Shown here: positions 754 through 61,470 of the stretch, piece by piece
Layout: every line of letters starts with the position of its first letter
How positions within the stretch are numbered: position 1 is the first letter of the stretch
NCBI RefSeq assembly: GCF_020510565.1
Contig: NZ_CP075189.1
Coordinates: 2,402,501 to 2,466,500, forward strand
Source of the DNA: Ferribacterium limneticum
GTDB taxonomy: Bacteria; Pseudomonadota; Gammaproteobacteria; Burkholderiales; Rhodocyclaceae
Direction: 5' to 3'
Length of the DNA: 64,000 bases
The notes under the pieces: model-generated
The model's input: the letters and a program-made list of their open reading frames with translations, nothing else
What the model was told of the DNA's origin: nothing
Databases searched by the model: none
Program-made: the position numbers and the translations under genes

Positions 754-1758
754 ATGACCGGGGTAGGTAACAATTCAGTCACGCACGCAGTCATCGGCGA
801 AGAAGAAGAGGGGCAGCGCCTCGACAACTTTTTGATTCGCCGTTGCAAGGGGGTTCCGAAGAGCCATATCTACCGGATTTTGCGGAGCGGAGAAGTACGG
901 GTGAATAGCGGCCGGGTTGATGCAACTTATCGTCTTTGCGCTGGCGATAATGTGCGAATTCCGCCGATTCGCATTGCTGAGCGGCCGCAAAACGAGGTCG
1001 ACGAAGTCGCCAAGGAGCGCGTCGATCTGCCGATTATTTACGAAGACGAGGCAATGCTCGTCATCGACAAGCCGGAAGGTATTGCCGTCCATGGTGGCAG
1101 CGGCGTCAGTTTTGGCGTGATCGAGGCTTTGCGCCGACAGCGACCGCAAGCCAAGTTTCTTGAGCTGGCGCACCGACTTGATCGCGAGACCTCCGGTGTG
1201 CTGCTCGTTGGCAAGAAGCGACTGGCGCTGACTGCGTTGCACGACATGTTTCGCGAACACGGGGCAGGGGCTGACAAGCGCTATCTGGTTCTGGTCAAAG
1301 GGCGTTGGATGAACGTCACCCAGCACGTGAAGTTGCCCCTGCACAAATATCTGACTGAGGGCGGTGAGCGGCGTGTTTCGGTAAATCCCGAGGGCAAGGC
1401 TTCACATACGATCTTCCGTTTGCTGGCTCGCTGGTCGGATATGAGCCTACTTGAAGCGCAACTGAAAACCGGGCGCACGCACCAGATTCGAGTTCATCTG
1501 GCGCATCTTGGCTTTCCTATCCTTGGTGACGAGAAGTACGGTGATTTCGCGTTGAACAAGAATCTGAAACGCGATGGCCTGAAACGCATGGCGCTCCATG
1601 CCTGGCGGATGGCTTTTCGCCACCCGCTGATGGCAACTCCGCTTGAGTGTATTGCGCCACTGCCGGATAGCTTCGGTAGCTACATTGCCACGGTCAACCG
1701 GAAAAAAGACCCGGAATTCAAATCCGACAATCTGGACGAGATATTGAACAAACGATGA
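754..1758 (+). CDS. rluC: 23S rRNA pseudouridine synthase RluC
   Basis: Converts U955, U2504 and U2580 of 23S rRNA to pseudouridine in E. coli. The 334-residue protein has an N-terminal S4 RNA-binding domain (RLDNFLIRRCKGVPKSHIYR) and the RluA-family catalytic motif HRLDRETSG, with the expected nucleophile at Asp143, followed by GRTHQIRVHLAHLGFPILGD. Length is normal for RluC. The last ~25 residues include ATVNRKKDPEFKS, which is encoded by a copy of the dispersed repeat at 1688-1726, so the C-terminal tail is repeat-derived. The stop codon overlaps the next start (ATGA at 1755), suggesting translational coupling. The pairing with divergent rne is conserved in proteobacteria and supports RluC over the paralogue RluD. 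Confidence 0.93.
   Translation: MTGVGNNSVTHAVIGEEEEGQRLDNFLIRRCKGVPKSHIYRILRSGEVRVNSGRVDATYRLCAGDNVRIPPIRIAERPQNEVDEVAKERVDLPIIYEDEAMLVIDKPEGIAVHGGSGVSFGVIEALRRQRPQAKFLELAHRLDRETSGVLLVGKKRLALTALHDMFREHGAGADKRYLVLVKGRWMNVTQHVKLPLHKYLTEGGERRVSVNPEGKASHTIFRLLARWSDMSLLEAQLKTGRTHQIRVHLAHLGFPILGDEKYGDFALNKNLKRDGLKRMALHAWRMAFRHPLMATPLECIAPLPDSFGSYIATVNRKKDPEFKSDNLDEILNKR
1688..1726 (+). repeat. Dispersed ~40-bp repeat, copy 1 (inside rluC)
   Basis: Contains CCACGGTCAACCGGAAAA and ends in TTCAAATCCG. It is read in frame by rluC as ATVNRKK plus a lysine-rich tail. The second half is more diverged from the family than the first. Confidence 0.8.
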
Positions 1759-2405
1759 AATACGAACTGGTAGTCTTTGACTGGGATGGCACGCTGCTCG
1801 ACTCGGCTGGCGCCATCGTTCATGCCATCCAGGCGTCTTGCCGCGATCTGGGCTTATCAGTCCCGGATGATGCCCGTGCTCGCCATGTTATTGGACTTGG
1901 GCTGGCTGACGCTTTGCGCCATGCCGTACCGGATTTGCCTCCCGAAAGTACGCAGGCGATGGTCGAGCGCTATCGTTTTCACTATCTGTCTGGCGATAAG
2001 ACTCTCACCTTGTTCGACGGCGTGCCCGAGATGCTGCAACGCCTGAAGGAAGCCGGGCACATATTGACCGTGGCGACCGGGAAAAGCCGGCTTGGACTTG
2101 AACGGGCGCTCGATCATTCGGGGTTGCGTCCGCTATTTCAGGCCTCTCGTTGCGCCGACGAGTGTCATTCAAAACCGCATCCGCAGATGCTGCAGGAGCT
2201 GATGGCCGAGTTTGGCATTTCCGCCGAGTCGACGATCATGATCGGCGACACCTCGCATGATCTGCTGATGGCGACCAATGCCGGCGTCGACAGCCTGGCG
2301 GTAACCTATGGTGCCCATCCGCACGACCACCTGTTGGAACATAAGCCGGTGACCTGTCTGCATAGCGTGAAAGAGCTTGATCAGTGGTTACAGGATTACG
2401 CCTGA
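1755..2405 (+). CDS. HAD-superfamily hydrolase, phosphoglycolate phosphatase-like
   Basis: Cytoplasmic haloacid-dehalogenase-type phosphatase of 216 residues. Motif I is at the N terminus (VVFDWDGTLLDS; nucleophile Asp9 and Asp11), motif II is TVATGKS, the motif III lysine is in SKPHPQML, and motif IV is MIGDTSHDLLMATNAG. The cap domain between motifs I and II is helical, as in the Gph/PGP subfamily. The start overlaps the rluC stop and the 3' end overlaps the Rieske gene, so it is part of an rluC-HAD-Rieske-sppA transcription unit. This gene order is frequent in betaproteobacteria. The natural substrate cannot be read from sequence, and phosphoglycolate is only the family's best-known one. 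Confidence 0.85.
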   Translation: MKYELVVFDWDGTLLDSAGAIVHAIQASCRDLGLSVPDDARARHVIGLGLADALRHAVPDLPPESTQAMVERYRFHYLSGDKTLTLFDGVPEMLQRLKEAGHILTVATGKSRLGLERALDHSGLRPLFQASRCADECHSKPHPQMLQELMAEFGISAESTIMIGDTSHDLLMATNAGVDSLAVTYGAHPHDHLLEHKPVTCLHSVKELDQWLQDYA

Positions 2406-2743
2406 TCTGCACCAGCGGTGAGGTTGCGAATGCCGGGCCGGGGTTTCGTTTTACTGTGGAGCGCTACGGTCGTACGACGCCGGCATTTGTCATACGCTTT
2501 CATGGGCAGGTGCATGCCTATTTGAATGAATGCGGCCACGTTCCAGCTGAACTCGACTGGCTACCAGGCCAATTCTTCGACGATTCCAAGCTATACTTGA
2601 TTTGCTCGATTCATGGCGCACTTTATGCTCCAGAGTCTGGCAGATGTCTCGGCGGCCGGTGTCAGGGTAAAGGTTTGAAATCCTTGAAGGTGCAAGAGAT
2701 CGATGGACAGATATTTTTAGAGCAAGAAAACAATCATGGATAG
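2384..2743 (+). CDS. Small Rieske [2Fe-2S] protein
   Basis: A stand-alone Rieske ferredoxin-like protein of 119 residues. Cluster ligands are visible as Cys50-x-His52 and Cys74-x-x-His77 (NECGHV and CSIHGALY), the standard CxH...CxxH pattern. The start is GTG at 2384, overlapping the end of the HAD gene by 22 bases. No better in-frame ATG is available before the conserved region. It has no signal peptide or membrane segment, so it is probably a soluble electron carrier or an oxygenase-type ferredoxin. No oxygenase lies nearby, so the redox partner is unknown. Confidence 0.8.
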   Translation: MVTGLRLICTSGEVANAGPGFRFTVERYGRTTPAFVIRFHGQVHAYLNECGHVPAELDWLPGQFFDDSKLYLICSIHGALYAPESGRCLGGRCQGKGLKSLKVQEIDGQIFLEQENNHG

Positions 2744-3698
2744 CCCCCAACCGCCCAACAACGACTCCGCCTGGGAGCGGAAAACCCTTGAGAAACTGGT
2801 ATTCGCCGCCCTTGACGAGCAGCGGGCCCGCCGACGCTGGGGTATCGCCTTTAAGGCACTTGGCTTTGTCTACCTCTTGGTTGTGTTAATAGCGGTCGTT
2901 GACTGGGGGGCTGGCGCTGAGCATCAGGAGCGCCATACCGCTTTGGTAACCCTCAATGGCGTCATTGAGGCCAAGGGGGAGAGCAACGCGGAGAACCTCG
3001 TTGCCGCACTGAACAGCGCCTTCGAGGAAAAAAATGTTGCTGGCATCATCCTGCGCATCAACAGCCCGGGCGGCAGCCCGGTTCAGGCAGGAATCATCAA
3101 CGATGAAATTCGCCGCCTGCGTGGCAAATATCCGGACAAGCTCCTGTATGCTGTGGTCGAGGATATGTGTGCTTCGGGTGGTTATTACGTTGCTGCGGCA
3201 GCCGACAGTATCTACGTCAACAAGGCCAGCATTGTTGGCTCTATTGGCGTGCTGATGGACAGCTTCGGCTTCACTGGCACGATGGACAAGGCGGGTGTTG
3301 AGCGTCGCCTGCTGACTGCCGGCGAAAACAAGGGTTTCCTTGACCCGTTCTCACCACAGGCGCCGCAGCACAAGGCCCATGCCCAGACGCTGCTCAATGA
3401 TATTCACCAGCAGTTCATTGATGTTGTCAAAACCGGGCGTGGCAAGCGGCTCAAGGAAACGCCGGAAATGTTTTCCGGCCTGATGTGGACCGGCGCCCAG
3501 AGTGTTCAATTGGGGCTGGCTGACGATTTTGGCAGCGTCGAGTCGGTGGCCCGCGATGTCATCAAGGCCGAAAAGGTTCTCGATTATTCGGTCAAGGACA
3601 ATATCGCCGAACGCTTCGCCAAGCGCCTAGGTGCCAGCACCTTTGCCGGTTTCTGGAAGGGCTTCTCGGAAAGTGCTGCCGGCGTCAGCCTTCGCTAA
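2736..3698 (+). CDS. sppA: Signal peptide peptidase SppA (S49 family, short form)
   Basis: Membrane-anchored serine protease that degrades cleaved signal peptides. One transmembrane helix lies near residues 45-65 (FKALGFVYLLVVLIAVVDW), followed by a single S49 protease domain. The nucleophile is Ser147 in MCASGGYYVA and the likely general base is Lys199 in GENKGFLDPF; these match the Ser/Lys dyad of the short Bacillus-type SppA. At 320 residues it is half the size of the duplicated E. coli enzyme. The start overlaps the Rieske gene by 8 bases. A rho-independent terminator follows inside the convergent methyltransferase gene. Confidence 0.9.
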   Translation: MDSPQPPNNDSAWERKTLEKLVFAALDEQRARRRWGIAFKALGFVYLLVVLIAVVDWGAGAEHQERHTALVTLNGVIEAKGESNAENLVAALNSAFEEKNVAGIILRINSPGGSPVQAGIINDEIRRLRGKYPDKLLYAVVEDMCASGGYYVAAAADSIYVNKASIVGSIGVLMDSFGFTGTMDKAGVERRLLTAGENKGFLDPFSPQAPQHKAHAQTLLNDIHQQFIDVVKTGRGKRLKETPEMFSGLMWTGAQSVQLGLADDFGSVESVARDVIKAEKVLDYSVKDNIAERFAKRLGASTFAGFWKGFSESAAGVSLR

Positions 3699-3701
3699 AG
3701 C

Positions 3702-5589: not shown

Positions 5590-5607
5590 TTTTTTTGGAG
5601 TAAGAAA

Positions 5608-11158: not shown

Positions 11159-11596
11159 GTGCAGTTTCCGATCACCATCGGACTGCACCGTTCGCGCATT
11201 CTGGATGTGATGCTTCTGATTATCACCATGCTGACAAGTGCAACGATCCTGGGCTTTCAGTGTTCGGACTCAATGCGTGCGGGTCTGTTGATTGCCGTCC
11301 TGGTTTTGGGAATACAGGCTTGGTATGCCCTGAAGCCAAGCATCAAGGCAATCCGACTCGAACGCAACGGAGACATTTTGATCGCACGGGTCGGCGAAGG
11401 TGATTTTGTACAGGCGATACCCAAACCAGGGGCAACCATTCACCCTTGGCTGAGCATCATCCGTCTGACGACAGAGGACGGTCGAACCTCAACGCTGATT
11501 GCTACGGTCAACCGGAAAAATAGCGAAAATTTAAGACGCTTGCGGATGTTTATACGCTGGCAAGCGAATTTCAGCGGGCCGAACGACGACGCCTGA
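11159..11596 (+). CDS. YgfX-like small inner-membrane protein
   Basis: 145 residues starting at GTG 11159. Two hydrophobic helices lie near residues 14-34 and 41-56, followed by a soluble C-terminal domain with an aromatic end [10 protein letters not shown]. This matches the layout of YgfX/CptA proteins (two helices, small beta domain, basic C-terminal helix), and the position beside nadB and rpoE is where ygfX often sits. E. coli YgfX partners with SdhE and affects cell division proteins. The stretch [10 protein letters not shown] between the last strand and the C-terminal helix is encoded by a dispersed repeat copy, replacing the loop normally found there. The 3' end overlaps convergent nadB by 26 bases. 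Family call is from pattern, not a search. Confidence 0.6.
11502..11538 (+). repeat. Dispersed ~40-bp repeat, copy 2 (inside the YgfX-like gene)
   Basis: CTACGGTCAACCGGAAAAA followed by a diverged AT-rich half. It is read in frame as ATVNRKN, the same frame as copies 1 and 3. Confidence 0.8.
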
Positions 11597-22079: not shown

Positions 22080-22453
22080 TTTACGGCATCGGCACCGACA
22101 TCGTCGCCGTTGCCCGCCTGCGCGGCATGTGGGAGCGGCATGGCGACAAGGCGCTGGAGAAACTATTGGCGCCGCAGGAAATGGAAGAATTTGCCAAGGC
22201 GGCCGACAAAGGTCGCTTTCTCGCCAAACGTTTTGCCGCCAAGGAAGCCTTCAGCAAGGCGCTGGGCACCGGCGTGCGCCCACCGGCCACGCTGACGGCG
22301 ATTGCGGTCGGTCATAACGATCTGGGCAAGCCGGAACTGATCTTCCACGGTCAACTGGAAAAAATGCTCAAAAACAAAAACCTCAACGCCCATCTTTCGA
22401 TCAGCGACGAAGCGGAATACGCCGTCGCCTACGTCATTCTGGAGCACGCATGA
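22076..22453 (+). CDS. acpS: Holo-[acyl-carrier-protein] synthase
   Basis: Transfers 4'-phosphopantetheine from CoA to ACP Ser37 (acpP at 9.6 kb is its substrate). 125 residues with [12 protein letters not shown] (Mg-binding Asp) and [15 protein letters not shown]. It overlaps pdxJ and nagZ by 4 bases, the conserved pdxJ-acpS pair. Confidence 0.95.
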
Positions 22454-29323: not shown

Positions 29324-32300
29324 TCAATGAAAATCCCGGCTCGACGTTTCGAGCCGGCCCAGCCAGGCGGAAAGGTCAACCAGTCGCTTGGCGACGAGAT
29401 GAACGACTTCGCCTTCAATCTGCAATTGTCCATAGACACCGAGCAGTGTCGCGCCGAGCAATTCGCGGCGTTGCTTTTCGACCTGTTGCGGATGGACGAC
29501 GACATTGACCAGTCCACTTTCATCTTCGAGCGTGACGAACACGATGCCGGTTGCGGTGCCCGGTCGCTGGCGACCGACGACGATGCCGGCGGCACGGATC
29601 AGGGCGCGGTGGCCGGCGTTTTTGAGATCGGCTGCCGTGACGAATCGACGCTCAAACAGATGCTGGCGGAGCAGCGCCAGAGGGTGACGACGCAGGGTCA
29701 GGCCGAGGCTGCGGTAATCGGCGACGAGGTTTTCGGCTTCGCTGGGCATAGTCAGTTCGGCATCCGGCTCGCTGATTGTTGTGCCGGCGAAGAGATCGCC
29801 CTGCACCGCCGCCGCTGGTTTTTCCACGCCAGCCGCCCAAGCCGCTTGCCGACGGTGGCCGGCCAGACTCTGCAAGGCATCGGCGGCGGCCAGTTGATCG
29901 AGGTCGCGGCGTTGCAGACCGGCCCGTGCGCTGAGATCGGCAATATTCAAAAATGGGTGATTTTTCCGGTTGACCGTGGCAATGCGCTCGGCGACCGCTT
30001 TCGAGAAGCCGGATATCTCGCGCAGGCCAAGACGGACGGCGCCGCGCTCATCGATGATGCTGTCCCAGTCGCTGACCGTAACGTCGGGCGGCAAAACGGT
30101 CACGCCGTGGCGCCGGGCGTCCTGGATCAGCATCGACGGCGAGTAAAAACCCATAGGCTGGCTGTTGAGCAGGCCGCACAGGAAGATGGCCGGATGGTGG
30201 CGCTTGAGCCAGGCCGAGATGTAAACAAGCAGCGCGAAGCTGGCGGCGTGCGATTCGGGAAAGCCGTATTCGCCGAAGCCCTGAATTTGCTGGATGATGC
30301 GCCGGGCAAAGCTTTCCGGCAGATCGTTGGCGGCCATGCCGGCAAGCAGTTTCTGTTCGAAGGGTTCGAGGCCGCCCTTTCGCTTCCAGGCGGCCATCGC
30401 CCGGCGCAACTGGTCGGCCTCGCCGGGCGTGAAATTGGCGGCGACGACGGCCAGTTGCATGACCTGCTCCTGGAAAATCGGCACGCCGCAGGTGCGTTTG
30501 AGCACCTCATCGACGGCCGGCGTGATTTTCTCGATACGTTCCCTGCCCTGCCGCCGCTTGAGGTAGGGATGCACCATGTCTCCCTGGATCGGCCCGGGGC
30601 GGACGAGCGATACCTCGATGACCAGATCGTAGAAATTTCTTGGCCGCAGGCGGGGCAGCATGGCCATCTGGGCGCGCGATTCGACCTGGAAGACGCCCAT
30701 GCTGTCGGCGTGGCAGAGCATTTCATAGGTTTTCGGGTCTTCGGCCGGGATGTCGGCCATCTTCCACGGTCGACCGGAAATTTGGCTCAAAATCGAAAGC
30801 ATGCGGCGGATGGCCGAGAGCATTCCCAAGGCCAGCACATCGACTTTCATGAGGCCGACGGCGTCGAGATCATCCTTGTCCCACTGGATCACCGTGCGCT
30901 CGGGCATCGCCGTGTTTTCGACCGGGACCAGCCGGGCCAGCGGGCCGCGTGACATGACGAAGCCACCAACGTGCTGGGTCAGGTGGCGCGGAAAACCGCG
31001 CAACTGGCCGGCAATCCACAGCCATTTCTCGACGCGTGGCGAGGTTGGGTCGAGACCCTGCTCGGCGAAGCGCTCGGGCAGTTGCTCACGTTTGTCCCAC
31101 CAGGCCAGCGAGGCGGTCAGGGCGTCGATGCGCGCCGTCTCGAAACCGAGCACTCTGCCCGCATCGCGCAGCGCGCCCTTGGTCCGGTAGGTGATCAGCG
31201 CCGCGGCCAGCGCCGTCCGCTCGCGGGTGTATTTTTTGTAAATATAGGCGATGACCTCGGGGCGGCGTTCGTGCTCGAAATCGACGTCGATGTCCGGCGG
31301 CTCGCCGCGCTCCTTGGAAATGAAGCGCTCGAACAGCATGCCGGAACGATCCGGACTGACTTCGGTGATGCCCAGCGCAAAGCAGACAATCGAATTGGCC
31401 GCCGAGCCGCGCCCCTGGCACAGGATATCGACGCTGCGGGCGAAGCAGACGATGTCGTACACCGTCAGGAAATAGGCCTCGTATTTGAGCTCGGCGATCA
31501 AGGCCAGTTCATGCTCGACGATCTTTCGAACCTGATCCGGAACGCCTTGCGGATAACGATTCAGCAAGCCGCGCTCGGTTTCATGGCGCAGCCAGGAGGT
31601 TGGCGTATGGTCGGTTTCGACGATTTCCTCCGGATATTCGTAGCGCAGTTCATCGAGCGAGAAGCTGCACAGATCGGCGATTTTCAGCGTTTCCGCCAGC
31701 AGTTCTGGCGGATAGAGGCGCGACAGGCGCAGGCGTGTCCGCACATGCCGCTCGGCGTTGGGAAACAGCGCGTAACCAGCCTCGAAAACCGTCGTTTTGA
31801 GGCGCAGAGCGGTCAGCACATCCTGCACCGGCCGCCGGGCCTTGACGTGCATATGGACATCGCCTGCCGCCACCAGCGGCAGACCGCAAGCCGCGCCGAG
31901 CGATTGCAGATCGGCCAGCTTGGCCGCATCATCCGGCCCGGCGTGGAGTTCGACGGCGATCCACGCCCGGCCAGGAAAACGCTCGGCCAGCCAGCGACCA
32001 TCGTCGACCGAGGCAGCCTCGCCCGGCACCCACAGGACCAGGCAGTCGGGCACCGCGCCATTCGGCGACACGACATTGAGGTCGTGCCGTTGCAATGCGT
32101 AAGCGCCCTTTTCCGCCCGCCGCCGAGCCAGCGTAATCAGCGCAGAGAGGTTTCCGTAGCCCTCACGGTTTTTGGCCAGGAAAGCCAGTTTGAGGCCATC
32201 GACAGTCGTCATTTCGCTGCCGACGATCAGTTTCAACCCGGCTTGCTTGGCCGCCTGATGCGCCCGCACGATGCCGGCCAGCGAACATTCGTCGGTCAGC

Positions 32301-32419
32301 GCCAAGGCTGTATAGCCTTGTGCCGCAGCCTGCTCGATCAGTTCAGCCGGATGCGAAGCGCCGCGCAGAAAACTGAAATTGGAGAGGCAATGCAGCTCGG
32401 CATAGTCGGGCAAGGACAT
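29324..32419 (-). CDS. dnaE2: Error-prone DNA polymerase DnaE2 (ImuC)
   Basis: Alpha-type C-family polymerase used for damage-induced mutagenesis together with ImuA and ImuB. 1031 residues: N-terminal PHP domain (YAELHCLSNFSFLRGASHP), palm with the catalytic aspartates in PPDIDVDFEHERR, the finger region with GVFQVESRAQMAMLPRL, then the helix-hairpin-helix and OB fold. Two copies of the dispersed repeat lie in the coding sequence: one encodes ATVNRKNHPFLNI near residue 820, and the other, read antisense, encodes SQISGRPWKMADIP near residue 545. Both keep the frame and approximate family length. Last gene of the lexA-imuA-imuB-dnaE2 operon. Confidence 0.95.
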   Translation of the reverse strand: MSLPDYAELHCLSNFSFLRGASHPAELIEQAAAQGYTALALTDECSLAGIVRAHQAAKQAGLKLIVGSEMTTVDGLKLAFLAKNREGYGNLSALITLARRRAEKGAYALQRHDLNVVSPNGAVPDCLVLWVPGEAASVDDGRWLAERFPGRAWIAVELHAGPDDAAKLADLQSLGAACGLPLVAAGDVHMHVKARRPVQDVLTALRLKTTVFEAGYALFPNAERHVRTRLRLSRLYPPELLAETLKIADLCSFSLDELRYEYPEEIVETDHTPTSWLRHETERGLLNRYPQGVPDQVRKIVEHELALIAELKYEAYFLTVYDIVCFARSVDILCQGRGSAANSIVCFALGITEVSPDRSGMLFERFISKERGEPPDIDVDFEHERRPEVIAYIYKKYTRERTALAAALITYRTKGALRDAGRVLGFETARIDALTASLAWWDKREQLPERFAEQGLDPTSPRVEKWLWIAGQLRGFPRHLTQHVGGFVMSRGPLARLVPVENTAMPERTVIQWDKDDLDAVGLMKVDVLALGMLSAIRRMLSILSQISGRPWKMADIPAEDPKTYEMLCHADSMGVFQVESRAQMAMLPRLRPRNFYDLVIEVSLVRPGPIQGDMVHPYLKRRQGRERIEKITPAVDEVLKRTCGVPIFQEQVMQLAVVAANFTPGEADQLRRAMAAWKRKGGLEPFEQKLLAGMAANDLPESFARRIIQQIQGFGEYGFPESHAASFALLVYISAWLKRHHPAIFLCGLLNSQPMGFYSPSMLIQDARRHGVTVLPPDVTVSDWDSIIDERGAVRLGLREISGFSKAVAERIATVNRKNHPFLNIADLSARAGLQRRDLDQLAAADALQSLAGHRRQAAWAAGVEKPAAAVQGDLFAGTTISEPDAELTMPSEAENLVADYRSLGLTLRRHPLALLRQHLFERRFVTAADLKNAGHRALIRAAGIVVGRQRPGTATGIVFVTLEDESGLVNVVVHPQQVEKQRRELLGATLLGVYGQLQIEGEVVHLVAKRLVDLSAWLGRLETSSRDFH
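29941..29979 (-). repeat. Dispersed ~40-bp repeat, copy 3 (inside dnaE2)
   Basis: On the minus strand CCACGGTCAACCGGAAAAAT, then a diverged half. It is read in the gene's sense direction as ATVNRKN. Confidence 0.8.
30763..30799 (+). repeat. Dispersed ~40-bp repeat, copy 4 (inside dnaE2, antisense)
   Basis: TCCACGGTCGACCGGAAATTT then CTCAAAATCGAAAG. Opposite orientation to the gene; the polymerase reads it as SQISGRPWK. Confidence 0.8.
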
Positions 32420-32437: not shown

Positions 32438-33907
32438 TCAGGCGAACAGGCCGTGCAAAAACCAGCCGTCGGCGTTCCTGAACACCCAGGCCCATTGGCC
32501 GAGCGGATTGCGCGCGACGAAATAGTCGCGCCGCACATCGCCCGTCGCCCCGCCCTCGCCTTCATCCCACCAGCCGCTTTCCAGCCGCTCGGCGCGCGAC
32601 AGCAGCTTGAGCGGGCCGTGCCATTGCGGGCTGCCGGCCCGTTCGGCCAGCGCTTGCGGGGTCGGCAGCAGCCACAGCGGGCGGGATTGCTTGCTCTCGG
32701 CTGCCGCCTTGCCGGCTTTTTGCATTCCTACGGTCGACCGGAAAAAACGGCCAAAATTGAAATCGACTTCATGCGCTTGCGTCGCACACTCGGGCCGATG
32801 ATCGGCCATCTCGCCGAGCGCCTGCACCGCCCCTTCGCCGAGCCGCGCGCGCAGACGTTCCAGGCAGGCCAGCGTCCCCTCACCGGCCGTTGCCTGCTCG
32901 AACAGATGGGCGCTGGCGCCGGGCTTGGCTACCAGTTCATCGGCCTGCAAGCGCAAGGCTTCGACCGGCGCTGAGAGGTGCAGCCGGGAAAGATGCTCGC
33001 GCAGCAGGCGGACGAAACGCCCTTCGTCAGCGGCCGGCTCGGCGAAATTGAGGGCCAGCGACGTTGGCGGTCCGTCGTCGTGCGTCAGTTGCAGGGAGCA
33101 ACGGCGGACCAGCAACTGCCGGCCATGCAGCCAGCCGGCCAAGGCCGCGAACAGGCGCTGGCCAGCGAAAACCAGCGCCTCGGCGTGCTCGACACGCGAC
33201 GGCAGCGCGATATCGATGGCGAAGCTTTCCGGGAAAATGAAGGATTTTTGTGGATCGGGCAGATCGCCCCAGGCGCGCAGCAGATCGTCGACCGGCCCGT
33301 TGCCGATGCGCCGCCGCAAGCCGGCACCGGGCAGCTTGCGCAGATCGCCCAGTTGCCGCAGGCCGAATGATTCGAGCCGGTTCGTGACGTCATCAGGCCA
33401 GCCGGGAACGGCACACGGCAAGGCGGCCAAGGCCGAGTGCATGGTTGTCGGTTCCACATGAATCTGGCTGGCGCCCATCCGTGCCAGCCAACCAGCCCCG
33501 AGCGGCGTTGGCGCCACCGCCCAGCGGGTCGAGTAAGACTGTTCGACGCAACCAGCGAGCACCGCCGTAATGATCGCCTCGGCGCCGCCGAACAAACGCA
33601 GGCAGCCGCCGATTTCAAGCAGCAGCGCATCCGGTGGCACCAAACTGATCGTCGGCGTAAAGCGACCGGCCCAGCAGGCCAGGCTGTCGAGCGCCTGTTT
33701 TTCGCGCGCCTCGACACGTTCGAAAACACTCAGGCCAGGCAGCAGGCCCAGCGCCGTCGACAGCTTCTGCCCGGCACAAACGCCCGCTGCCACCGCCTCG
33801 GCATCGCCCACCTGCACCCGCCCGCGCGCGACGACCGCGCTAGGCGACTGGCGCAGCGGCAGCGCCTCGATCGGCAACAAGGGAAAGTGCAGGGCCAGCC
33901 ACAGCAC
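32438..33907 (-). CDS. imuB: ImuB, Y-family-like mutagenesis protein
   Basis: Catalytically inactive Y-family relative that bridges DnaE2, ImuA and the beta clamp. I start it at GTG 33907 (GGGAG about 8 bases upstream), giving the typical N terminus [16 protein letters not shown]; the frame opens further upstream to 33973. About 489 residues. The palm-like and little-finger-like regions are recognisable by family, and the usual Y-family catalytic carboxylates are not evident. The segment FNFGRFFRSTVGMQKAG is encoded antisense by a dispersed repeat copy. It overlaps imuA by 68 bases. Confidence 0.88.
   Translation of the reverse strand: MLWLALHFPLLPIEALPLRQSPSAVVARGRVQVGDAEAVAAGVCAGQKLSTALGLLPGLSVFERVEAREKQALDSLACWAGRFTPTISLVPPDALLLEIGGCLRLFGGAEAIITAVLAGCVEQSYSTRWAVAPTPLGAGWLARMGASQIHVEPTTMHSALAALPCAVPGWPDDVTNRLESFGLRQLGDLRKLPGAGLRRRIGNGPVDDLLRAWGDLPDPQKSFIFPESFAIDIALPSRVEHAEALVFAGQRLFAALAGWLHGRQLLVRRCSLQLTHDDGPPTSLALNFAEPAADEGRFVRLLREHLSRLHLSAPVEALRLQADELVAKPGASAHLFEQATAGEGTLACLERLRARLGEGAVQALGEMADHRPECATQAHEVDFNFGRFFRSTVGMQKAGKAAAESKQSRPLWLLPTPQALAERAGSPQWHGPLKLLSRAERLESGWWDEGEGGATGDVRRDYFVARNPLGQWAWVFRNADGWFLHGLFA
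32727..32766 (+). repeat. Dispersed ~40-bp repeat, copy 5 (inside imuB, antisense)
   Basis: CTACGGTCGACCGGAAAAAA then GGCCAAAATTGAAATCG. Very close to the intergenic copies at 47454 and 52290. Confidence 0.85.
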
Positions 33908-35234: not shown

Positions 35235-36581
35235 TCAGGTCGGCAGATCGAAACCCTTCAATTTACGGAACATGTCGACGGCGTAGGAGTCGGTCATCCC
35301 GGCGACAAAATCGGCCACCTGGAGCAGGCGAATGTACGGGTCGGCATCCGGCTCGCCGCCGTGGCCGAGGAACTGCGTCGGCAGCAGCTTGAGCAGCATG
35401 CGCTCGCGGGTCGTGTAGCGGGCGTGCCCTGCCCTCGCCTCGACTGCATTGGTGAACAGGCCGAGCAAGGCGCCGAGGACCTCGAAGCCGGCCGTTTCGA
35501 TCTCCAGCGCCGGGCGGGCGGTGTAGATCGTTTCCTTGGCCAATTTGAGAATGGCCTGCAACGGGTGGGCGATGGGTGAGCTTTCGAGCAGTTCGTCGTC
35601 AAACTTGCCGCTCAGGATGGCGTCCTCGTTTTCGAGGAAGACGGCGGCGGCGCTTTCAAGCAGGCAGCCGATGGCCTTGGCGCGCAGGTATTCGAGGCGT
35701 TCCTTCGGGTCGTGCAGATGGTGTAGCCGAGCACCATTGATGGTGTTGCCGGCCAGGTCGGCAAGCAGGCATTCGGCATCCTTGTAGGGCACAAAGCCGA
35801 GCCGGGCGGCGTCTTCGAGGTCGACGATCAAATAGCAGGTGTCGTCCGCCACTTCAACGAGAAAAGCCAGCGGATGACGGTGCCAGGCGGTATTTGGAAT
35901 TCGCTCGATTAATCCGGTTGACCGTGCGACTCGCCGGAAATTATCGGCATCCTGCTGGAAGAAGCCGAATTTCTTGCCGCTCTTGCCATCCAGCTCGGTC
36001 TCGATATGCGACGGGCGCGGATATTTGGTGAAAGTCGCCAGCACCGCGCTGCTCAGTTGCAGGCCGCCGGGATTGGCCGGGCTTTGCAGCCGGCTGACAA
36101 TGCGAAAGCCCTGCGCATTGCCTTCGTAGCGCTCGAAGTCGGCTTTCTGTGCTGATGTGAATTGGTGGCGATCAAGCAAGCCGGAATGGCGGAACCACTC
36201 GCGGATAGCGTCCTCGCCAGCGTGGCCGAAAGGCGGATTGCCGATATCGTGGGCCAGGCAGGCAGCGGCAACGATGGCGCCAAAATCGCCCGACTCAACG
36301 TGCTGCAGGCCGTGCCGGGCGATGATCTCGCGGCCGACCACGGCACCCAGCGAGCGGCCGACGCAACTGACTTCAAGGCTGTGCGTCAGGCGGGTGCGAA
36401 CGTAATCGCTCTTGGAGAGCGGGAAAACCTGCGTCTTGTCCTTCATGCGCCGGAAGGCGGAGGTGAAGACGATGCGGTCGTAATCCTGCTGGAAGGCTGT
36501 GCGTTCCGCCGTACCGGGCGCCTTGCCGGCCCCCAGGCGTTCGCTCGACAGCAGTTTTTCCCAGACTTTGCGTTTGCCCAT
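35235..36581 (-). CDS. dgt: Deoxyguanosinetriphosphate triphosphohydrolase-like protein
   Basis: HD-domain dNTPase. 448 residues: RRMKDKTQVFPL, RTRLTHSLEV, the HD motif in AACLAHDIGNPPFGHAGEDA, and HPLAFLVEVADDTCY. Around 35908-35935 the minus strand holds CACGGTCAACCGGA, a 14-base match to the dispersed repeat core, encoding ARSTGLIE; the rest is too diverged for a firm call. It lies upstream of lexA on the same strand, with the LexA box between them. Confidence 0.92.
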   Translation of the reverse strand: MGKRKVWEKLLSSERLGAGKAPGTAERTAFQQDYDRIVFTSAFRRMKDKTQVFPLSKSDYVRTRLTHSLEVSCVGRSLGAVVGREIIARHGLQHVESGDFGAIVAAACLAHDIGNPPFGHAGEDAIREWFRHSGLLDRHQFTSAQKADFERYEGNAQGFRIVSRLQSPANPGGLQLSSAVLATFTKYPRPSHIETELDGKSGKKFGFFQQDADNFRRVARSTGLIERIPNTAWHRHPLAFLVEVADDTCYLIVDLEDAARLGFVPYKDAECLLADLAGNTINGARLHHLHDPKERLEYLRAKAIGCLLESAAAVFLENEDAILSGKFDDELLESSPIAHPLQAILKLAKETIYTARPALEIETAGFEVLGALLGLFTNAVEARAGHARYTTRERMLLKLLPTQFLGHGGEPDADPYIRLLQVADFVAGMTDSYAVDMFRKLKGFDLPT

Positions 36582-39660: not shown

Positions 39661-39678
39661 TCGATCGCGCCTGACGCT

Positions 39679-39718
39679 TCTACGGTCAACCGGAAAAAAC
39701 GTCAAAAATCAAAAACGC
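39679..39718 (+). repeat. Dispersed ~40-bp repeat, copy 6 (intergenic, after fabI)
   Basis: CTACGGTCAACCGGAAAAAA then GTCAAAAATCAAAAACGCC. The A-rich end runs directly into the fabI terminator stem. Confidence 0.85.
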
Positions 39719-47376: not shown

Positions 47377-47413
47377 GTTTCAAATTTGGGCAAAATTTCC
47401 GGTTGACCGTGGA
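47377..47413 (-). repeat. Dispersed ~40-bp repeat, copy 7 (intergenic, inverted)
   Basis: Minus strand: TCCACGGTCAACCGGAAATT then GCCCAAATTTGAAACA. It faces copy 8, with a 40-base gap. Confidence 0.85.
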
Positions 47414-47453
47414 AGTCGGTTGCGAGAACCCCTGCAGGCTCAAAGCAGGCAAT

Positions 47454-47492
47454 CCCACGGTCAACCGGAAAAAATGGCCAAAAATGAAAACG
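47454..47492 (+). repeat. Dispersed ~40-bp repeat, copy 8 (intergenic)
   Basis: CCCACGGTCAACCGGAAAAA then GGCCAAAAATGAAAACGG. It forms an inverted pair with copy 7, and its A-rich end supplies the T tract of the rhodanese-gene terminator on the minus strand. Confidence 0.88.
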
Positions 47493-52177: not shown

Positions 52178-52478
52178 GGGATGAATTCGGCGGTAGCGGA
52201 AAGGGCGAAATTATACCCGAGCCCGGCCCTGCTCTCGGCGGCTAATCAGCAATGCAACGCGACTGCGGGGGCTGTTAAAACCCCGGAATTCCACGGTCAA
52301 CCGGAAAAAATGGCCAAAATTGAAATTCGCCATGCCACCCAAATCGCGCGCCTCGTGCGGATGCTCGACACCTTCCGCCGGCATCGCCGCTCGCACAAGG
52401 ACAAACGCGGACCGCTGACCGCGTCGCAAAGTTGTAGTAGCCTTGCGACCCCTTTCGACGTCGAACCAGGTCATGATC
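52178..52478. other. Intergenic region between purL and the DUF3348 operon
   Basis: Holds a TATAAT -10 candidate for purL (minus strand, 52210-52215, without a good -35), repeat copy 9, and about 150 bases before the DUF3348 start. A short frame starting inside the repeat (MAKIEIRHATQIARLV...) runs to 52489, but it has no ribosome-binding site and I do not call it a gene. Confidence 0.5.
52290..52331 (+). repeat. Dispersed ~40-bp repeat, copy 9 (intergenic)
   Basis: TCCACGGTCAACCGGAAAAA then GGCCAAAATTGAAATTCGCC. One of the least diverged copies. Confidence 0.9.
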
Positions 52479-55599: not shown

Positions 55600-56244
55600 A
55601 TGGAAGACATCGACGCCAGCGTCGACCACAGCACGCCCGTCTGGGCCGTCTTCGGCGACCTCATGGCCGGCCTGCTCGGCGCCTTCGTGCTCATTCTGGT
55701 CGGCGTGCTCGGCGTGCAGCTCGAACTGGTCACTAGCCTCGAAGCCGAAATCCAGAAACGCCAGCAGGAAGAACAACGCCGCGAAGCACTCGAAAAAGCG
55801 CTCGCCGGCCCGCTCGCCTCCGGCCGCGTGACGCTCAACAACGGCAAGATCGGCATCAGCGGCAATGTGCTCTTCGCGCTCAACTCCGACCAGTTGCAAC
55901 CGGAAGGCAAACAGCTCCTCAAGAGCCTGTCGCAACCCATCGCCGCCTACCTCGGCGCCAGCGAACAGATGCTCATGGTCAGCGGCTTCACCGACGACAT
56001 GCCGGTGCGCGGCAGCAACAGCCGTTTCGCCGACAACTGGGAACTCTCCGCCCAGCGCGCCCTGACTGTCACAAGAACGCTGATCGAGGACGGCGTGCCC
56101 TCGTCATCCATCTTCGCCGCCGCCTTCGGTTCGCAGCAGCCAGTCGCCGACAACGCCGACGCCGACGGCCGCGCCCGGAATCGCCGCGTCGAAATGGCGC
56201 CGGTGCCGAAGTCCAGAACCAACGGCAAGGAAGCCAATGGCTGA
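55600..56244 (+). CDS. MotB/ZorB-like protein with OmpA C-terminal domain
   Basis: 214 residues. A short cytoplasmic start, one transmembrane helix (about 20-45) beginning FGDLMAGLLGAFVLILVG with an Asp at the position expected for the proton-binding aspartate of MotB/ZorB, a charged helical linker (EAEIQKRQQEEQRREALEKA), then an OmpA-like peptidoglycan-binding domain (VSGFTDDMPV, NWELSAQRALTVTRTLIEDG, AFGSQQPVADNADADGRARN). This is the standard partner for the MotA-like protein encoded 2 bases upstream. It overlaps DUF2894 by 8 bases. Confidence 0.85.
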   Translation: MEDIDASVDHSTPVWAVFGDLMAGLLGAFVLILVGVLGVQLELVTSLEAEIQKRQQEEQRREALEKALAGPLASGRVTLNNGKIGISGNVLFALNSDQLQPEGKQLLKSLSQPIAAYLGASEQMLMVSGFTDDMPVRGSNSRFADNWELSAQRALTVTRTLIEDGVPSSSIFAAAFGSQQPVADNADADGRARNRRVEMAPVPKSRTNGKEANG

Positions 56245-56920
56245 AACGGGTGATCTGCAAGCCCAACTCGACGCCCTGCGTGCCAGCGGCGCCGCCGACC
56301 GCGACCCCATCCGCTTCACCTACCTCGAAGCACTCAGCCGCCGCGCCGCCACGCAGCCGGAAGCCATCCGCCAGTCGCTCAACGCCAAAATCAGCGCCGC
56401 CGCCAACGAACTCGCCAGCCGCCCGGCTCCGATACCCGCCGAGATTGTGGAGACAAGCCCTGCCAGCCCGCTCGCCGACCTCCTCGCCTACATCAGCGGA
56501 CAAGCCCACGGCCAACCGGGCACCATCGAACCCGCCCACGACAATCCCACGGTCAACCGGAAAATTAGCCCAAAATCAAAATCCGCCTCGGCAACCCCTC
56601 GCCAGCAAGGCCCCGAACTCAAGTCCGTCGCCATCTTCCGCAACGAGTGGTCAAAACTCAGCACCGAACAACAACTCACCCAAACGCTCGCCCAGGCCCC
56701 CGAAAACGCCGGCCCCATGAATTCCCAGCACCTCGTCCTGCGCAGCCTGGAACGCATGCGCGACATCGCCCCGGACTACCTGCAGGGTTTCATGAGCTAC
56801 ATCGACACGCTGATCTGGCTCGACCATGCCGACCCGACGAAACCTACTGCCGGGCGAACCGCAAACACCGAGGGCGAGAAGAAGCCGCGAACTGCCAAAC
56901 GGGTTTCGACAAAACACTAA
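56237..56920 (+). CDS. DUF2894 protein, last gene of the MotA/MotB-like operon
   Basis: 227 residues, soluble. An N-terminal helical part (LQAQLDALRASGAADRDPIRFTYL), a variable Pro-rich linker, then the conserved core KSVAIFRNEWSKLSTEQQL, APENAGPMNSQHLVLRSLER, GFMSYIDTLIWLDHAD, and a Lys-rich end. The linker contains PTVNRKISPKSKSASA, encoded by a dispersed repeat copy. Always next to the DUF802 and OmpA genes in the cases I recall; function unknown. Confidence 0.82.
   Translation: MAETGDLQAQLDALRASGAADRDPIRFTYLEALSRRAATQPEAIRQSLNAKISAAANELASRPAPIPAEIVETSPASPLADLLAYISGQAHGQPGTIEPAHDNPTVNRKISPKSKSASATPRQQGPELKSVAIFRNEWSKLSTEQQLTQTLAQAPENAGPMNSQHLVLRSLERMRDIAPDYLQGFMSYIDTLIWLDHADPTKPTAGRTANTEGEKKPRTAKRVSTKH
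56545..56587 (+). repeat. Dispersed ~40-bp repeat, copy 10 (inside the DUF2894 gene)
   Basis: CCCACGGTCAACCGGAAAAT then GCCCAAAATCAAAATCCGCC. Read in frame as PTVNRK. Confidence 0.88.
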
Positions 56921-58990: not shown

Positions 58991-59008
58991 CCGCAATGGC
59001 ACACAAAC

Positions 59009-59596
59009 TCAATAGACGCTACCGTTGGCATTCGTTGAAGTCATCACGCCGTTGTTAACGTTGATCTTGTAAGTCGTTGGTGCGCTGTTCGCCTGGAACT
59101 TTTTCACCTCGACGTTGGTAAACGTCAGCGGCGTTGCCGGTTCCACGGTGAGGCTGCTATTTGCCGAAGGCTTGAGAATGTAGGCCGCACCAAAGCTTTT
59201 GGGGTTGCTTACAGCCTTGATTGCTGGCGGTGTCGAGCAGGACATGTCTTCACACTCCAGCAGCAAAGCTGTTTCCTGATCGACGCCGATGGCCTGTGCC
59301 ACGCTGCTGTCTGCTTTGTTTTCGACGATCGTGCGCCCCAGGAAACTGATCAGCACCGCCGTACGCGAAAACAGCGGGTTGCTACGCGGCAAGGAACCAG
59401 GATTCGACTCGCAGGGCAGCGTACCGACGGGCTTTCCATGCTGGTAGACGCTGACTTTCGACTTGTTGGCAGCCTCAACCGGCCCGAAGGCGGCAGCAAG
59501 AAAGACCCCGCTGAGCGTTGCGGCCAACAACTTGAGCTTTGCCCCGGTGCTTCTACGTTGTTGTGAGGCGGCAAACATCTGTACTGGCGATTTCAA
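59009..59596 (-). CDS. Truncated cyanophycinase-like (S51) exported protein
   Basis: 195 residues with a signal-peptide-like N terminus (LLAATLSGVFLAAAFGPVEA). The body matches only the C-terminal part of secreted cyanophycinase-type peptidases: LFSRTAVLISFLGRT, AIGVDQETALLLE, GAAYILKPS, PLTFTNVEVKKF. The catalytic half with the Gly-x-Ser-Ala-Gly-type nucleophile is missing, so it should have no peptidase activity. It appears to be an internal deletion that joined the export signal to the C domain. The family call is mine from pattern. Confidence 0.6.
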   Translation of the reverse strand: MKSPVQMFAASQQRRSTGAKLKLLAATLSGVFLAAAFGPVEAANKSKVSVYQHGKPVGTLPCESNPGSLPRSNPLFSRTAVLISFLGRTIVENKADSSVAQAIGVDQETALLLECEDMSCSTPPAIKAVSNPKSFGAAYILKPSANSSLTVEPATPLTFTNVEVKKFQANSAPTTYKINVNNGVMTSTNANGSVY

Positions 59597-59932
59597 TTTA
59601 CGGTCCTTTCAAATGCGTGGTGGGAGGCTCAGGGCTTGGGCGAGAGGTCGATGTTCTGCTGGCTGCCTCGACGGCAGGATGACGATGCAATATTAGACCA
59701 CGGTTTCCTTTTCGGAGCCCTTCCTGTCCAGGGCACTAACAAGCCCCGGCCACCACTCCCACGGTCAACCGGAAAATTCGCCCAAAATTGAAATTTCCGT
59801 ATGGACGCCTTGCGCCTCTCCCAAGGGAACCAAAGCCGTCGCTTAGCATCGAAATTGCTTCAACCACGGCCAGTGCCGCGATTTACGACAAAATCGCCGG
59901 TGGCCGATGGAAAACCGACAAAGCCCATTTCG
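59597..59932. other. Intergenic region between the S51-like gene and selO
   Basis: About 336 bases holding repeat copy 12 and presumably the two divergent promoters, which I could not define. The selO frame stays open back to 59801, immediately after the repeat. Confidence 0.5.
59757..59799 (+). repeat. Dispersed ~40-bp repeat, copy 12 (intergenic, upstream of selO)
   Basis: CCCACGGTCAACCGGAAAAT then GCCCAAAATTGAAATTTCC. Confidence 0.88.
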
Positions 59933-61417
59933 ATGAACGCACCAGCTCCCCAATTTTTTGCCTTTGACAACACCTATGTCCGCGATCTGGAGGAGTTCTA
60001 CGTTCTCTGGAAGCCGACGCCGGCCAGCAAGCCGGTCCTGATCCGCCTCAACGATGAACTGGCTCGCGAATTGGGGGCCGATCCGGAAGCGCTGGCATCG
60101 CCGGCGGGGATCGATATTTTGGCGGGGAGCCTGGTGCCAGAAGGTGCCGAGCCGATTGCCCAGGCATACGCCGGCCACCAGTTCGGCCAGTTTTCGCCGC
60201 AGCTGGGCGATGGGCGGGCCTTGTTGCTCGGCGAGGTGATCGACCGCCACGGCGAGCGCCGCGACATTGCTTTCAAGGGTTCCGGCCGCACCCCGTTTTC
60301 GCGCAATGGCGACGGCAAATGCGCGCTCGGGCCGGCTCTGCGCGAATACATCATCAGCGAGGCGATGCACGCCCTGGGCATTCCGACCACCCGTTCGCTG
60401 GCCGTGGTGGCAACCGGCGACATGGTGCGCCGCGACCGCGCCCAGCCCGGCGCCGTGCTCACCCGTGTCGCCGCCAGCCATGTGCGCGTCGGCACCTTCC
60501 AGTACTTCGCCGCCCACCAAGGGCCGGAACAGGTCAGGCGCCTGGCCGATTACGTCATCGCCCGCCATTACCCGGCGCTGGCCGCCAGCCCGCAGCCCTA
60601 CCTCGACCTGCTGGCCGCCGTCGGCGAGCGGCAGGCCAACCTGGTCGCGCGCTGGCTCGGCGTCGGCTTCATCCACGGCGTCATGAACACCGACAACATG
60701 ACGCTGTCCGGCGAAACCATCGACTACGGCCCGTGTGCCTTCATGGAAACCTACAGCCCGGGCACCGTCTTTAGTTCCATCGACAGCGCCGGGCGCTACG
60801 CCTACGGCAAGCAGGCCGGCATCGCCCGCTGGAATCTGGCAAGGCTGGCCGAAACCCTGCTGCCGCTCATCGACGCCGACACGCAACGCGCGGTTGAAGC
60901 CGCCACCTCCGTCATCGACGCCCTGCCCGAGCGCCAGGCCGTGCACTGGCTGCGCGTTTTCCGCGCCAAGCTCGGCCTCGACGAAACCGGCGACGCCGAA
61001 GCCGACCGCGCCCTGATCGACGATTTCCTGCGCATCCTCAAGCAAAACCGACTCGACTTCACCGTCGCCTTCCGCGCCCTGTTCCACGCGGCGGCCGGCG
61101 ATGCCACGCGCCTCAACGCGCTAATGGCCGAAGCCACCGACTTCGCCGACTGGCAAACCCGCTGGCAGTCCCGCCAACAGACCCGTTCGCCCGAACTGCT
61201 CACCGCCATGCAACACGCCAACCCGTGCTACATCCCGCGCAACCATCGCGTCGAAGCCGCCCTCGATGCCGCCGTCGATCACAACGACCTGGCCCCCTTC
61301 GAACGCCTGCTCGCCGTCATCCGCGCCCCGTTCGACGAGCGCCTGGAAGACGCTGAATATGCCGAGCCGGCGCCGACCGAATTCACCACCGGCTACATGA
61401 CCTTCTGCGGCACCTGA
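59933..61417 (+). CDS. selO: Protein adenylyltransferase SelO (YdiU)
   Basis: Pseudokinase that transfers AMP to Ser/Thr/Tyr residues of proteins. 494 residues from ATG 59933 (MNAPAPQFFAFDNTYVRDLE); the frame is open from 59801 but the extension is not conserved in appearance. Family motifs: AYAGHQFGQFSPQLGDGRA, FKGSGRTPFSRNGDGKCALG, GVMNTDNMTLSGETIDYGPCAF and the C-terminal FTTGYMTFCGT; the last Cys is the residue that is selenocysteine in some eukaryotic SelO. It is flanked by direct repeat copies 12 and 13. Confidence 0.93.
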   Translation: MNAPAPQFFAFDNTYVRDLEEFYVLWKPTPASKPVLIRLNDELARELGADPEALASPAGIDILAGSLVPEGAEPIAQAYAGHQFGQFSPQLGDGRALLLGEVIDRHGERRDIAFKGSGRTPFSRNGDGKCALGPALREYIISEAMHALGIPTTRSLAVVATGDMVRRDRAQPGAVLTRVAASHVRVGTFQYFAAHQGPEQVRRLADYVIARHYPALAASPQPYLDLLAAVGERQANLVARWLGVGFIHGVMNTDNMTLSGETIDYGPCAFMETYSPGTVFSSIDSAGRYAYGKQAGIARWNLARLAETLLPLIDADTQRAVEAATSVIDALPERQAVHWLRVFRAKLGLDETGDAEADRALIDDFLRILKQNRLDFTVAFRALFHAAAGDATRLNALMAEATDFADWQTRWQSRQQTRSPELLTAMQHANPCYIPRNHRVEAALDAAVDHNDLAPFERLLAVIRAPFDERLEDAEYAEPAPTEFTTGYMTFCGT

Positions 61418-61425
61418 ACCCGCAT

Positions 61426-61470
61426 TCCCACGGTCAACCGGAAATTTTGCCCAAAATCGAAATCCCCGAA
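61426..61470 (+). repeat. Dispersed ~40-bp repeat, copy 13 (intergenic, selO-arsC)
   Basis: CCCACGGTCAACCGGAAATT then GCCCAAAATCGAAATCCCC. It ends 11 bases before the arsC-like start. Confidence 0.88.

What the first reader, a model, noticed from the sequence alone, without database searches (positions are those of the whole stretch)
1688..61470. Dispersed ~40-bp repeat family, 13 clear copies in 64 kb, in and between genes
The core ACGGTCAACCGGAAAA followed by an A-rich half (consensus near GGCCAAAATTGAAATCC) recurs at 1688, 11502, 29941(-), 30763, 32727, 39679, 47377(-), 47454, 52290, 56545, 58822, 59757 and 61426, plus a likely decayed copy in dgt (35908-35935, minus). Seven are intergenic and six lie in coding sequence. 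The density (about one per 5 kb), both orientations and tolerance inside genes suggest a small mobile or protein-bound element. CGGTCAACCG is itself a short palindrome, so a DNA-binding protein could be the reason for its conservation. I know of no description of it.
Basis: partly seen in the sequence, partly recalled or inferred. Interest (0 to 1): 0.82.

Follow-up and report, generated by a model that had tools for sequence, protein, structure and literature searches.

The report
Likely DNA-uptake tags in Azonexus
A roughly 40-letter DNA signature scattered hundreds of times through this water bacterium's chromosome looks like a self-recognition tag for taking up DNA of its own kind, a trick so far described in two other bacterial families, but uptake itself still has to be tested.

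Summary
The core ACGGTCAACCGGAAAA occurs 534 times (up to 1 mismatch) in the 4.15-Mb chromosome, against 0 for the reversed pattern. A profile of 165 sampled copies gives a sharp-edged 40-bp element: a core followed by phased A-tracts. It does not behave like an inserted element: of 14 genome-site pairs lacking it, 8 have exactly equal length and none is short by 40. This test covers mainly coding copies (13 of 14). Related species carry other cores, once at the same orthologous site: GTCAACC, GTCGACC, GTAAGCC. Copies avoid coding DNA and divergent gaps, show no replichore bias, and are missing from a stretch with conjugation genes. Within the order sampled, only the GTDB genus that includes Dechloromonas agitata and records labelled Azonexus has more than two per genome. 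These are hallmarks of DNA-uptake sequences (Neisseria DUS, Pasteurellaceae USS), with a different core in a third lineage and a USS-like layout. Uptake specificity and receptor are inferred, not shown; ComEC and a ComP-family pilin are present, but also in genomes with few or no copies.

The parts
1684..1723 (+). repeat copy, core exact, in the 3' end of an rluC-like gene (952-1758, +; gene names here and below by eye)
11498..11537 (+). repeat copy, core exact, convergent intergenic gap (fabF-like / nadB-like)
29944..29983 (-). repeat copy, core exact, inside a dnaE2-like gene (29324-32419, -)
30760..30799 (+). repeat copy, core 2 mismatches (GTCGACC type), inside the same dnaE2-like gene
32724..32763 (+). 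repeat copy, core 1 mismatch (GTCGACC type), inside an imuB-like gene (32438-33907, -)
35892..35931 (-). decayed copy in a dgt-like gene (35235-36581, -), core 2 mismatches
39676..39715 (+). repeat copy, core exact, convergent intergenic gap after a fabI-like gene
47377..47416 (-). repeat copy, core 1 mismatch, intergenic; half of a pair with 47451-47490; aligned in relatives L142, L145, L147
47451..47490 (+). repeat copy, core exact, intergenic; relative L142 has a 16-bp insert here between core and A-rich half
52287..52326 (+). repeat copy, core exact, intergenic; present in L154, L141 (1 core mismatch) and L147
56543..56582 (+). repeat copy, core exact, inside a coding sequence (56237-56920, +); the orthologous site has GTCAACC here, GTAAGCC in L146, GTCGACC in G307 (L176), an 18-bp insert in L144, and no element at equal length in L157
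58818..58857 (+). repeat copy, core 1 mismatch, intergenic; no bridging match in relatives
59755..59794 (+). repeat copy, core exact, intergenic; present in L142
61424..61463 (+). repeat copy, core 1 mismatch, intergenic; present in L145

Best explanation
The repeats are DNA-uptake-sequence-like tags. A surface receptor of the type IV pilus DNA-uptake machine is inferred to bind the core (ACGGTCAACCGG) and to use the phased A-tracts on its 3' side for bending or docking. DNA fragments carrying a tag are then taken up and recombined more often than others. Over time this molecular drive fixes near-matches wherever a gene or promoter does not suffer, so tags accumulate by change in place, mostly between genes and towards 3' ends. 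When the receptor's specificity shifts, the set of tags drifts to a new dialect, which gives the different cores seen within the genus. Shown here: abundance, architecture, in-place origin (coding copies), dialects, distribution, restriction to the genus within the order sampled, and presence of ComEC and a ComP_DUS-family minor pilin. Inferred: receptor binding, uptake bias, and that the organism is naturally competent.
For: Abundance: 534 copies against 0 control. Architecture: one conserved core plus A-tracts at core-relative positions about 12-17, 23-27 and 30-33 with sharp edges; [quoted passage not shown] Orientation and spacing: 90 vs 75 by strand of replication (p 0.28, taking origin at the contig start and terminus at 2.40 Mb from GC skew); per-20-kb counts mean 2.53, variance 2.42. 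Change in place: of 14 genome-site pairs without the element, 8 have length difference 0, 2 are longer by 3-6, 4 shorter by 9, 20, 24, 37; 18 rows of a second comparison give differences from -27 to +15, 9 of them 0 (rows not independent). The motif-coded stretch of AcpS aligns without a gap to three AcpS chains. This is the kind of gap test Redfield et al. used for USS. Dialects: CGGTCGACCGNNNAA 343 times in G307 and 322 in G448; GTAAGCC core 25 and 28 times in G444 and G462; different cores at the orthologues of window site 56549. Distribution: 0.83/kb in intergenic gaps vs 0.042/kb in coding sequence; convergent gaps 40 observed vs 14.9 expected, divergent 11 vs 23.7. Depletion: five consecutive sampled stretches (2.69-2.99 Mb) without a copy at up to 1 mismatch, about 2e-4 by chance; one holds F-type conjugation genes. 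Known uptake sequences evolve by point mutation and are under-represented in newly acquired and coding DNA (PMC7811141 section 8).
Against: No uptake or transformation data for the genus in the papers I could search (2 papers hold all three terms, each with one mention of Dechloromonas; listing only). Density, about 1 per 7.8 kb, is well below the roughly 1 per kb of Haemophilus and Neisseria. ComEC (71 of 76) and the ComP_DUS pilin (70 of 76; all 51 good genomes for both) also occur in genomes with few or no copies such as D. agitata, so gene presence does not discriminate; 10 of 14 control genomes, E. coli among them, carry the ComEC domain. The own-genome pilin sits behind a PilY1-like frame (by eye) and may be an ordinary minor pilin. 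The in-place test rests on coding sites: 13 of 14 pairs are coding, where a 40-bp insertion would be selected against anyway; 3 of the 8 equal-length pairs have cores with 2 mismatches. Intergenic evidence is one pair (-20) and two sites (-14/-15 and -21). The -37 pair is poorly aligned and could be read as an empty site. The recurrent 16-18-bp insert is not explained by point mutation.
Confidence: 0.73

Rival explanations
1. Binding site of an intracellular chromosome-organising or nucleoid-associated protein (a dispersed, near-palindromic operator used for domain structure, nucleoid occlusion or segregation).
For: Near-palindromic core, perfectly palindromic in the GTCGACC dialect; hundreds of sites spread over the chromosome; missing from a stretch with conjugation genes.
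Against: No strand bias; the window lies where GC skew changes sign and still holds many copies. Core specificity differs among close relatives, and some have few or no copies, which would be odd for a housekeeping chromosome protein. The A-tracts lie on one side only. None of this excludes it.
Confidence: 0.17
2. A small mobile element (MITE- or REP-like) that copied itself around the genome.
For: Very strong consensus with sharp edges; a recurrent 16-18-bp insert and two tandem double cores suggest some copying of sequence between sites; the gap test is thin for intergenic copies, which are the majority.
Against: Element-free orthologous sites are mostly of equal length and none is short by 40; the nearest is one poorly aligned -37. 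No gap in the motif-coded stretch of AcpS. Different cores at one orthologous site.
Confidence: 0.06
3. An RNA-level element such as a transcription terminator or 3'-UTR signal.
For: Enriched in convergent gaps and, in tandem gaps, nearer the upstream stop; the core could form a 4-bp hairpin (by eye, not folded).
Against: No T-run follows the hairpin in the consensus on either strand (by eye); in tandem gaps orientation is 22 same vs 19 opposite; 41 of 165 copies lie wholly inside coding sequence; no Rfam match at the window's copies.
Confidence: 0.04

Closest known systems
Uptake signal sequence (USS) of Pasteurellaceae
   Same: [quoted passage not shown] many copies, no orientation bias; origin by substitution, not insertion; two dialects (AAGTGCGGT, ACAAGCGGT); under-represented in coding and newly acquired DNA (PMC1626085 passages; PMC7811141 passages and section 8; PMC2346458 passages).
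   Different: Different core (ACGGTCAACCGG, near-palindromic); betaproteobacterial host; lower density (about 1 per 7.8 kb against about 1 per kb); longer motif with a third A-tract; uptake untested.
DNA uptake sequence (DUS) of Neisseriaceae
   Same: Betaproteobacterial host; dialects among related species (PMC3630211, passages); [quoted passage not shown] a ComP_DUS-family pilin and ComEC present here.
   Different: Core differs from GCCGTCTGAA, and DUS has no flanking motifs (PMC1626085, passage). A ComP-type receptor is not shown here.
Highly iterated palindrome HIP1 of cyanobacteria (recalled, not looked up)
   Same: Abundant dispersed palindromic motif.
   Different: The present element is long and asymmetric, with A-tracts and species dialects.

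Membership tests
DNA uptake sequences (DUS/USS) as a kind | Hundreds or more copies of one strong consensus, far above chance | tested here: met
   534 vs 0 reversed control; profile of 165 copies
DNA uptake sequences (DUS/USS) as a kind | Both orientations, no replication-strand bias | tested here: met
   273/261; 90/75, p 0.28, origin and terminus assumed from GC skew
DNA uptake sequences (DUS/USS) as a kind | Arises by change in place, not by insertion: coding copies | tested here: met
   13 coding pairs: 8 of equal length, the rest -37, -24, -9, +3, +6; AcpS gap test
DNA uptake sequences (DUS/USS) as a kind | Arises by change in place, not by insertion: intergenic copies | tested here: inconclusive
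   one pair (-20) and two sites (-14/-15, -21); no difference of 40, but too few
DNA uptake sequences (DUS/USS) as a kind | Dialects in related species | tested here: met
DNA uptake sequences (DUS/USS) as a kind | Under-represented in coding and newly acquired DNA | tested here: met
   crude gene caller; one region only
DNA uptake sequences (DUS/USS) as a kind | Host has the DNA-uptake machinery | tested here: inconclusive
   ComEC and a ComP_DUS-family pilin present but also in genomes without the repeat; other competence genes not searched
DNA uptake sequences (DUS/USS) as a kind | DNA carrying it is taken up preferentially | not testable with these tools
   needs an uptake or transformation assay
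Pasteurellaceae USS (the named family) | Core AAGTGCGGT or ACAAGCGGT | tested here: not met
   core is ACGGTCAACCGG or dialects
[quoted passage not shown]
   definition from PMC1626085
Neisseriaceae DUS (the named family) | Core GCCGTCTGAA (or a dialect), without flanking motifs | tested here: not met
   definition from PMC1626085
Transposable repeats (MITE/REP) | Present/absent as an insertion at orthologous sites | tested here: not met
   one doubtful -37 pair; mainly coding sites
Oriented chromosome motifs (Chi, KOPS) | Strong leading-strand orientation bias | tested here: not met

The most novel reading that the evidence does not exclude
A third, independently evolved DNA-uptake-sequence system, in environmental Betaproteobacteria (the GTDB genus that includes Azonexus/Dechloromonas), with USS-like architecture, a near-palindromic core, and at least three dialects. 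The dialects do not follow a single-gene tree cleanly, so receptor specificity may have switched or been exchanged within the genus.
Probability: 0.68. Interest if true: 0.87.

Novelty: new variant of a known kind. Interest (0 to 1): 0.8.

Why it matters
Sequence-specific self-DNA uptake is described in species of two families that mainly live in mucosal and respiratory-tract environments (PMC7811141). A third origin in a genus with wastewater and sediment members would challenge the idea that the trait is tied to life amid host DNA. It would give a third data point for how uptake motifs and receptors co-evolve, and the dialects among 76 related genomes offer a natural experiment for finding the receptor. 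It would also mean that genetic exchange within this genus, which includes polyphosphate accumulators and a denitrifier (abstracts listed), is partly controlled by a readable tag.

Tried and rejected
Rejected or set low: a mobile element (thin for intergenic copies); Chi/KOPS-like orientation; an intrinsic terminator (by eye); a known RNA family (only four tRNAs in the window). Phages and plasmids: an exact 19-mer hits 2 stretches in the viral collection (not followed up); one 45-base copy has no match among the plasmid records (short query, low-complexity filter on). ComP_DUS pilin as a discriminating marker: failed, present in 70 of 76 genomes and strongest in low-copy G218 (0 of 14 control genomes there, E. 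coli below the cut-off). ComEC as a marker: likewise. A 12-mer search in 80 kb each of G218 and D. agitata G399 showed no alternative tag that I recognised; the architecture pattern found 3 and 0 copies in 153 kb each. A first LepA tree was wrong because minus-strand loci had not been turned; replaced. No gene-calling program was available; mine is crude (77.5% coding, low for a bacterium), so intergenic fractions are upper bounds. Rows dropped: from the 90 rows I left out 28 rows of four copies with a shared larger repeat in their flanks (15 with element, 10 without, 3 other core) and two duplicate D. agitata rows. 194 of 203 sampled copies (up to 2 mismatches) were used there, the rest lying too near a stretch's end. 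G444 was dropped from the tree for lack of a full LepA match, leaving 29 of 30.
Full report
WHAT WAS CHECKED. One good copy was missed, in acpS at 22347. In the whole genome (one contig, 4,150,051 bases; the window is 2,402,501-2,466,500) the 16-mer core with up to one mismatch occurs 534 times, 273 forward and 261 reverse, against 0 for the reversed pattern; with up to two mismatches 675 against 2. Gene names for the window are mine, by eye from translations, except AcpS.

ANATOMY. I took 60 stretches of 20 kb spread over the genome plus the window, 1.264 Mb. 165 copies with up to one core mismatch give the profile GATTGCCACGGTCAACCGGAAAAAnGGCCAAAATTGAAAT, 40 bp, with little conservation outside. 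The core is followed on one side by A-tracts at about 12-17, 23-27 and 30-33, the first two roughly a helical turn apart. CGGTCAACCG is an imperfect palindrome. Taking the origin at the contig start and the terminus at 2.40 Mb from GC skew, copies divide 90/75 by replication strand (p 0.28); counts per stretch are Poisson-like (mean 2.53, variance 2.42).

WHERE COPIES LIE. With a crude codon-based gene caller (77.5% coding; probably an underestimate) 104 of 165 copies are intergenic, 20 at gene edges and 41 wholly inside genes. Density is 0.83 per kb in intergenic gaps against 0.042 per kb in coding sequence. Of the 104 intergenic copies 92 fell in a classified gap: 40 convergent (14.9 expected), 11 divergent (23.7 expected), 41 tandem (53.4 expected; 28 of 41 in the two fifths nearest the upstream stop). 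Inside genes the motif runs with the gene in 28 of 41 cases, and the commonest frame (18 of 41) encodes peptides like TVNRK. For known uptake sequences one orientation is also favoured in reading frames, with a bias to gene ends in Pasteurellaceae (PMC2346458, passages). Five consecutive sampled stretches between 2.69 and 2.99 Mb have no copy at up to one mismatch (chance about 2e-4; one has a single two-mismatch hit). One of them encodes TraE, TraK, a TrbI-like protein, TraC, TraU and TraN, two have GC near 0.52 with genes that look catabolic by eye; I take this as acquired DNA, though I did not map its ends.

NOT AN INSERTED ELEMENT, AS FAR AS TESTED. The flanks of 194 sampled copies were matched to 86 loci of relatives: 90 bridged rows, 59 with the element, 5 with another or doubtful core, 26 without. 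After leaving out the rows of four copies with a shared larger repeat, and duplicates, 14 genome-site pairs at 11 sites lack the element: 8 of exactly equal length, 2 longer by 3 and 6, 4 shorter by 9, 20, 24 and 37. The -37 pair is poorly aligned and could be read either way. Thirteen of the 14 pairs are coding sites, and 3 of the 8 equal-length ones have a core with two mismatches. A second comparison among the window and relatives gave 18 element-free rows with differences from -27 to +15, 9 of them 0; these rows repeat a few sites, two of them apparently intergenic (-14/-15 and -21). The motif-coded stretch of AcpS aligns without a gap to the three AcpS chains shown, with a one-residue gap just after it. 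So coding copies arise by change in place; for intergenic copies nothing points to a 40-bp insertion, but the data are few. Redfield et al. applied a gap test to USS in coding sequences of Haemophilus and concluded that USS are not insertions (PMC1626085, passages). For Neisseria, Treangen et al. argue that many recent DUS came by recombination rather than point mutation (PMC2397512, passages).

DIALECTS. Within the genus (76 genomes) ten have 534-683 hits of the GTCAACC-type 16-mer at up to two mismatches, G431 (76% complete) has 283, and the rest 0-206. Sampling other species showed different cores with a similar A-tract tail: GTCGACC in G307, G401 and G402. Genome-wide, CGGTCGACCGNNNAA occurs 343 times in G307, 322 in G448, 222 in G458 and 219 in G405, and 0 times in D. 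agitata G399; reversed controls sum to 0-7 per genome. A third core, GTAAGCC (16-mer, up to one mismatch), is found 25 times in G444, 28 in G462 and 0-3 times in the others. A pattern that leaves the three middle bases open and asks for the A-tracts occurs in 58 of 76 genomes, up to 121 times in the own genome, with controls of 0-2. At one orthologous coding site (window 56549) the window has GTCAACC, L146 has GTAAGCC, G307 has GTCGACC (at the same offset in a gap whose length differs by 3) and L157 has none at equal length. In a LepA tree of 29 genomes the high-copy GTCAACC genomes fall in at least two well-separated, supported places: G000, G442, G454, G428 and G419 (98/98), and G413, G414 and G443 (100/100), next to GTAAGCC-type G462 (98/90). 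One gene, in possibly recombining species, so a lead only.

TAXONOMIC RANGE. In an order-wide sample of 399 genomes five of the six genus members had 6-534 copies and the sixth 2; the other 393 had at most 2. In a family sample of 150, the four genus members had 8-236 architecture matches and the 146 others 0-2. Outside the order I did not search cellular genomes. The genus includes D. agitata is5 (G399 has the contig length of NZ_KI912532.1) and related loci are labelled Azonexus, Azonexaceae and Dechloromonas.

MACHINERY. The own genome has ComEC and one ComP_DUS-family pilin (E 1e-24) behind a PilY1-like frame. Both families occur in all 51 good genus genomes, including those with few or no tags, so they are compatible with uptake but do not prove it. 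I did not search for other competence genes. The receptor is unknown.

INTERPRETATION. Strong consensus, both strands, change in place, avoidance of constrained and acquired DNA, and dialects among close relatives are together what is known of uptake sequences (PMC7811141 section 8; PMC3630211 passages) and are hard to explain by transposition. A chromosome-structuring protein is the main rival; rapid dialect change and near-absence in some relatives speak against it but do not exclude it. I put the uptake-sequence reading at 0.73. By sequence it is not a member of the Neisseria or Pasteurellaceae families; it would work like them, with the layout of USS. In the held library I found no paper on uptake sequences in Rhodocyclales, Dechloromonas or Azonexus (listings and starts of abstracts of the papers shown, plus a passage check of PMC7593972, where Azonexus is only in the reference list). 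Subscription papers and preprints were not searched.

UNEXPLAINED. A long form with an 18-bp insert near GTTTACTACGTGAAACGT between core and tail occurs at six sampled sites (up to 2 mismatches) and, where the window has the short form, with 16 and 18 bp in relatives L142 and L144; two tandem double cores exist. Simple point mutation does not make these.

Noticed in passing
G000 sampled stretches, e.g. 414001+11026(-), 483001+6126(+), 1725001+15376(-), 3519001+12825(+); L144:6369; L142:1732: Long form of the repeat: an 18-bp insert near GTTTACTACGTGAAACGT between core and A-rich half, recurring at unrelated sites and at orthologous sites in relatives; two tandem double cores at 3105001+10542 and 3519001+11454.
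   Followed up: partly
G428:C33:109525-144033 and G449:C1:2218607-2251879: The ComEC domain is split at the same profile position (about 26-29) by roughly 33 kb in two species, which may mean an integrative element using comEC as its site (the short piece in G428 is below the family cut-off).
   Followed up: no
G000:C1 about 2.69-2.99 Mb (L069-L073): Repeat-free region with F-type conjugation genes (L072) and low-GC clusters that look catabolic by eye, in two similar sets (L070 and L071).
   Followed up: partly
G000:C1 484312(-), 1802366(+), 3045971(+), 3250117(-): Four copies have flanks that match the same G218 stretches L133, L162 and L163, suggesting a bigger dispersed repeat beside the tag.
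   Followed up: no
window 29944-29983 (-) and 30760-30799 (+): Two copies in opposite orientation inside one dnaE2-like gene.
   Followed up: no
window near 1 (G000 about 2.37-2.40 Mb): GC skew changes sign between the sampled stretches 2346001 and 2402501, so the replication terminus may lie at or just before the window; tag density stays high there.
   Followed up: partly
L237:9694, L238:827: Two viral contigs carry an exact 19-mer of the tag; not examined.
   Followed up: no
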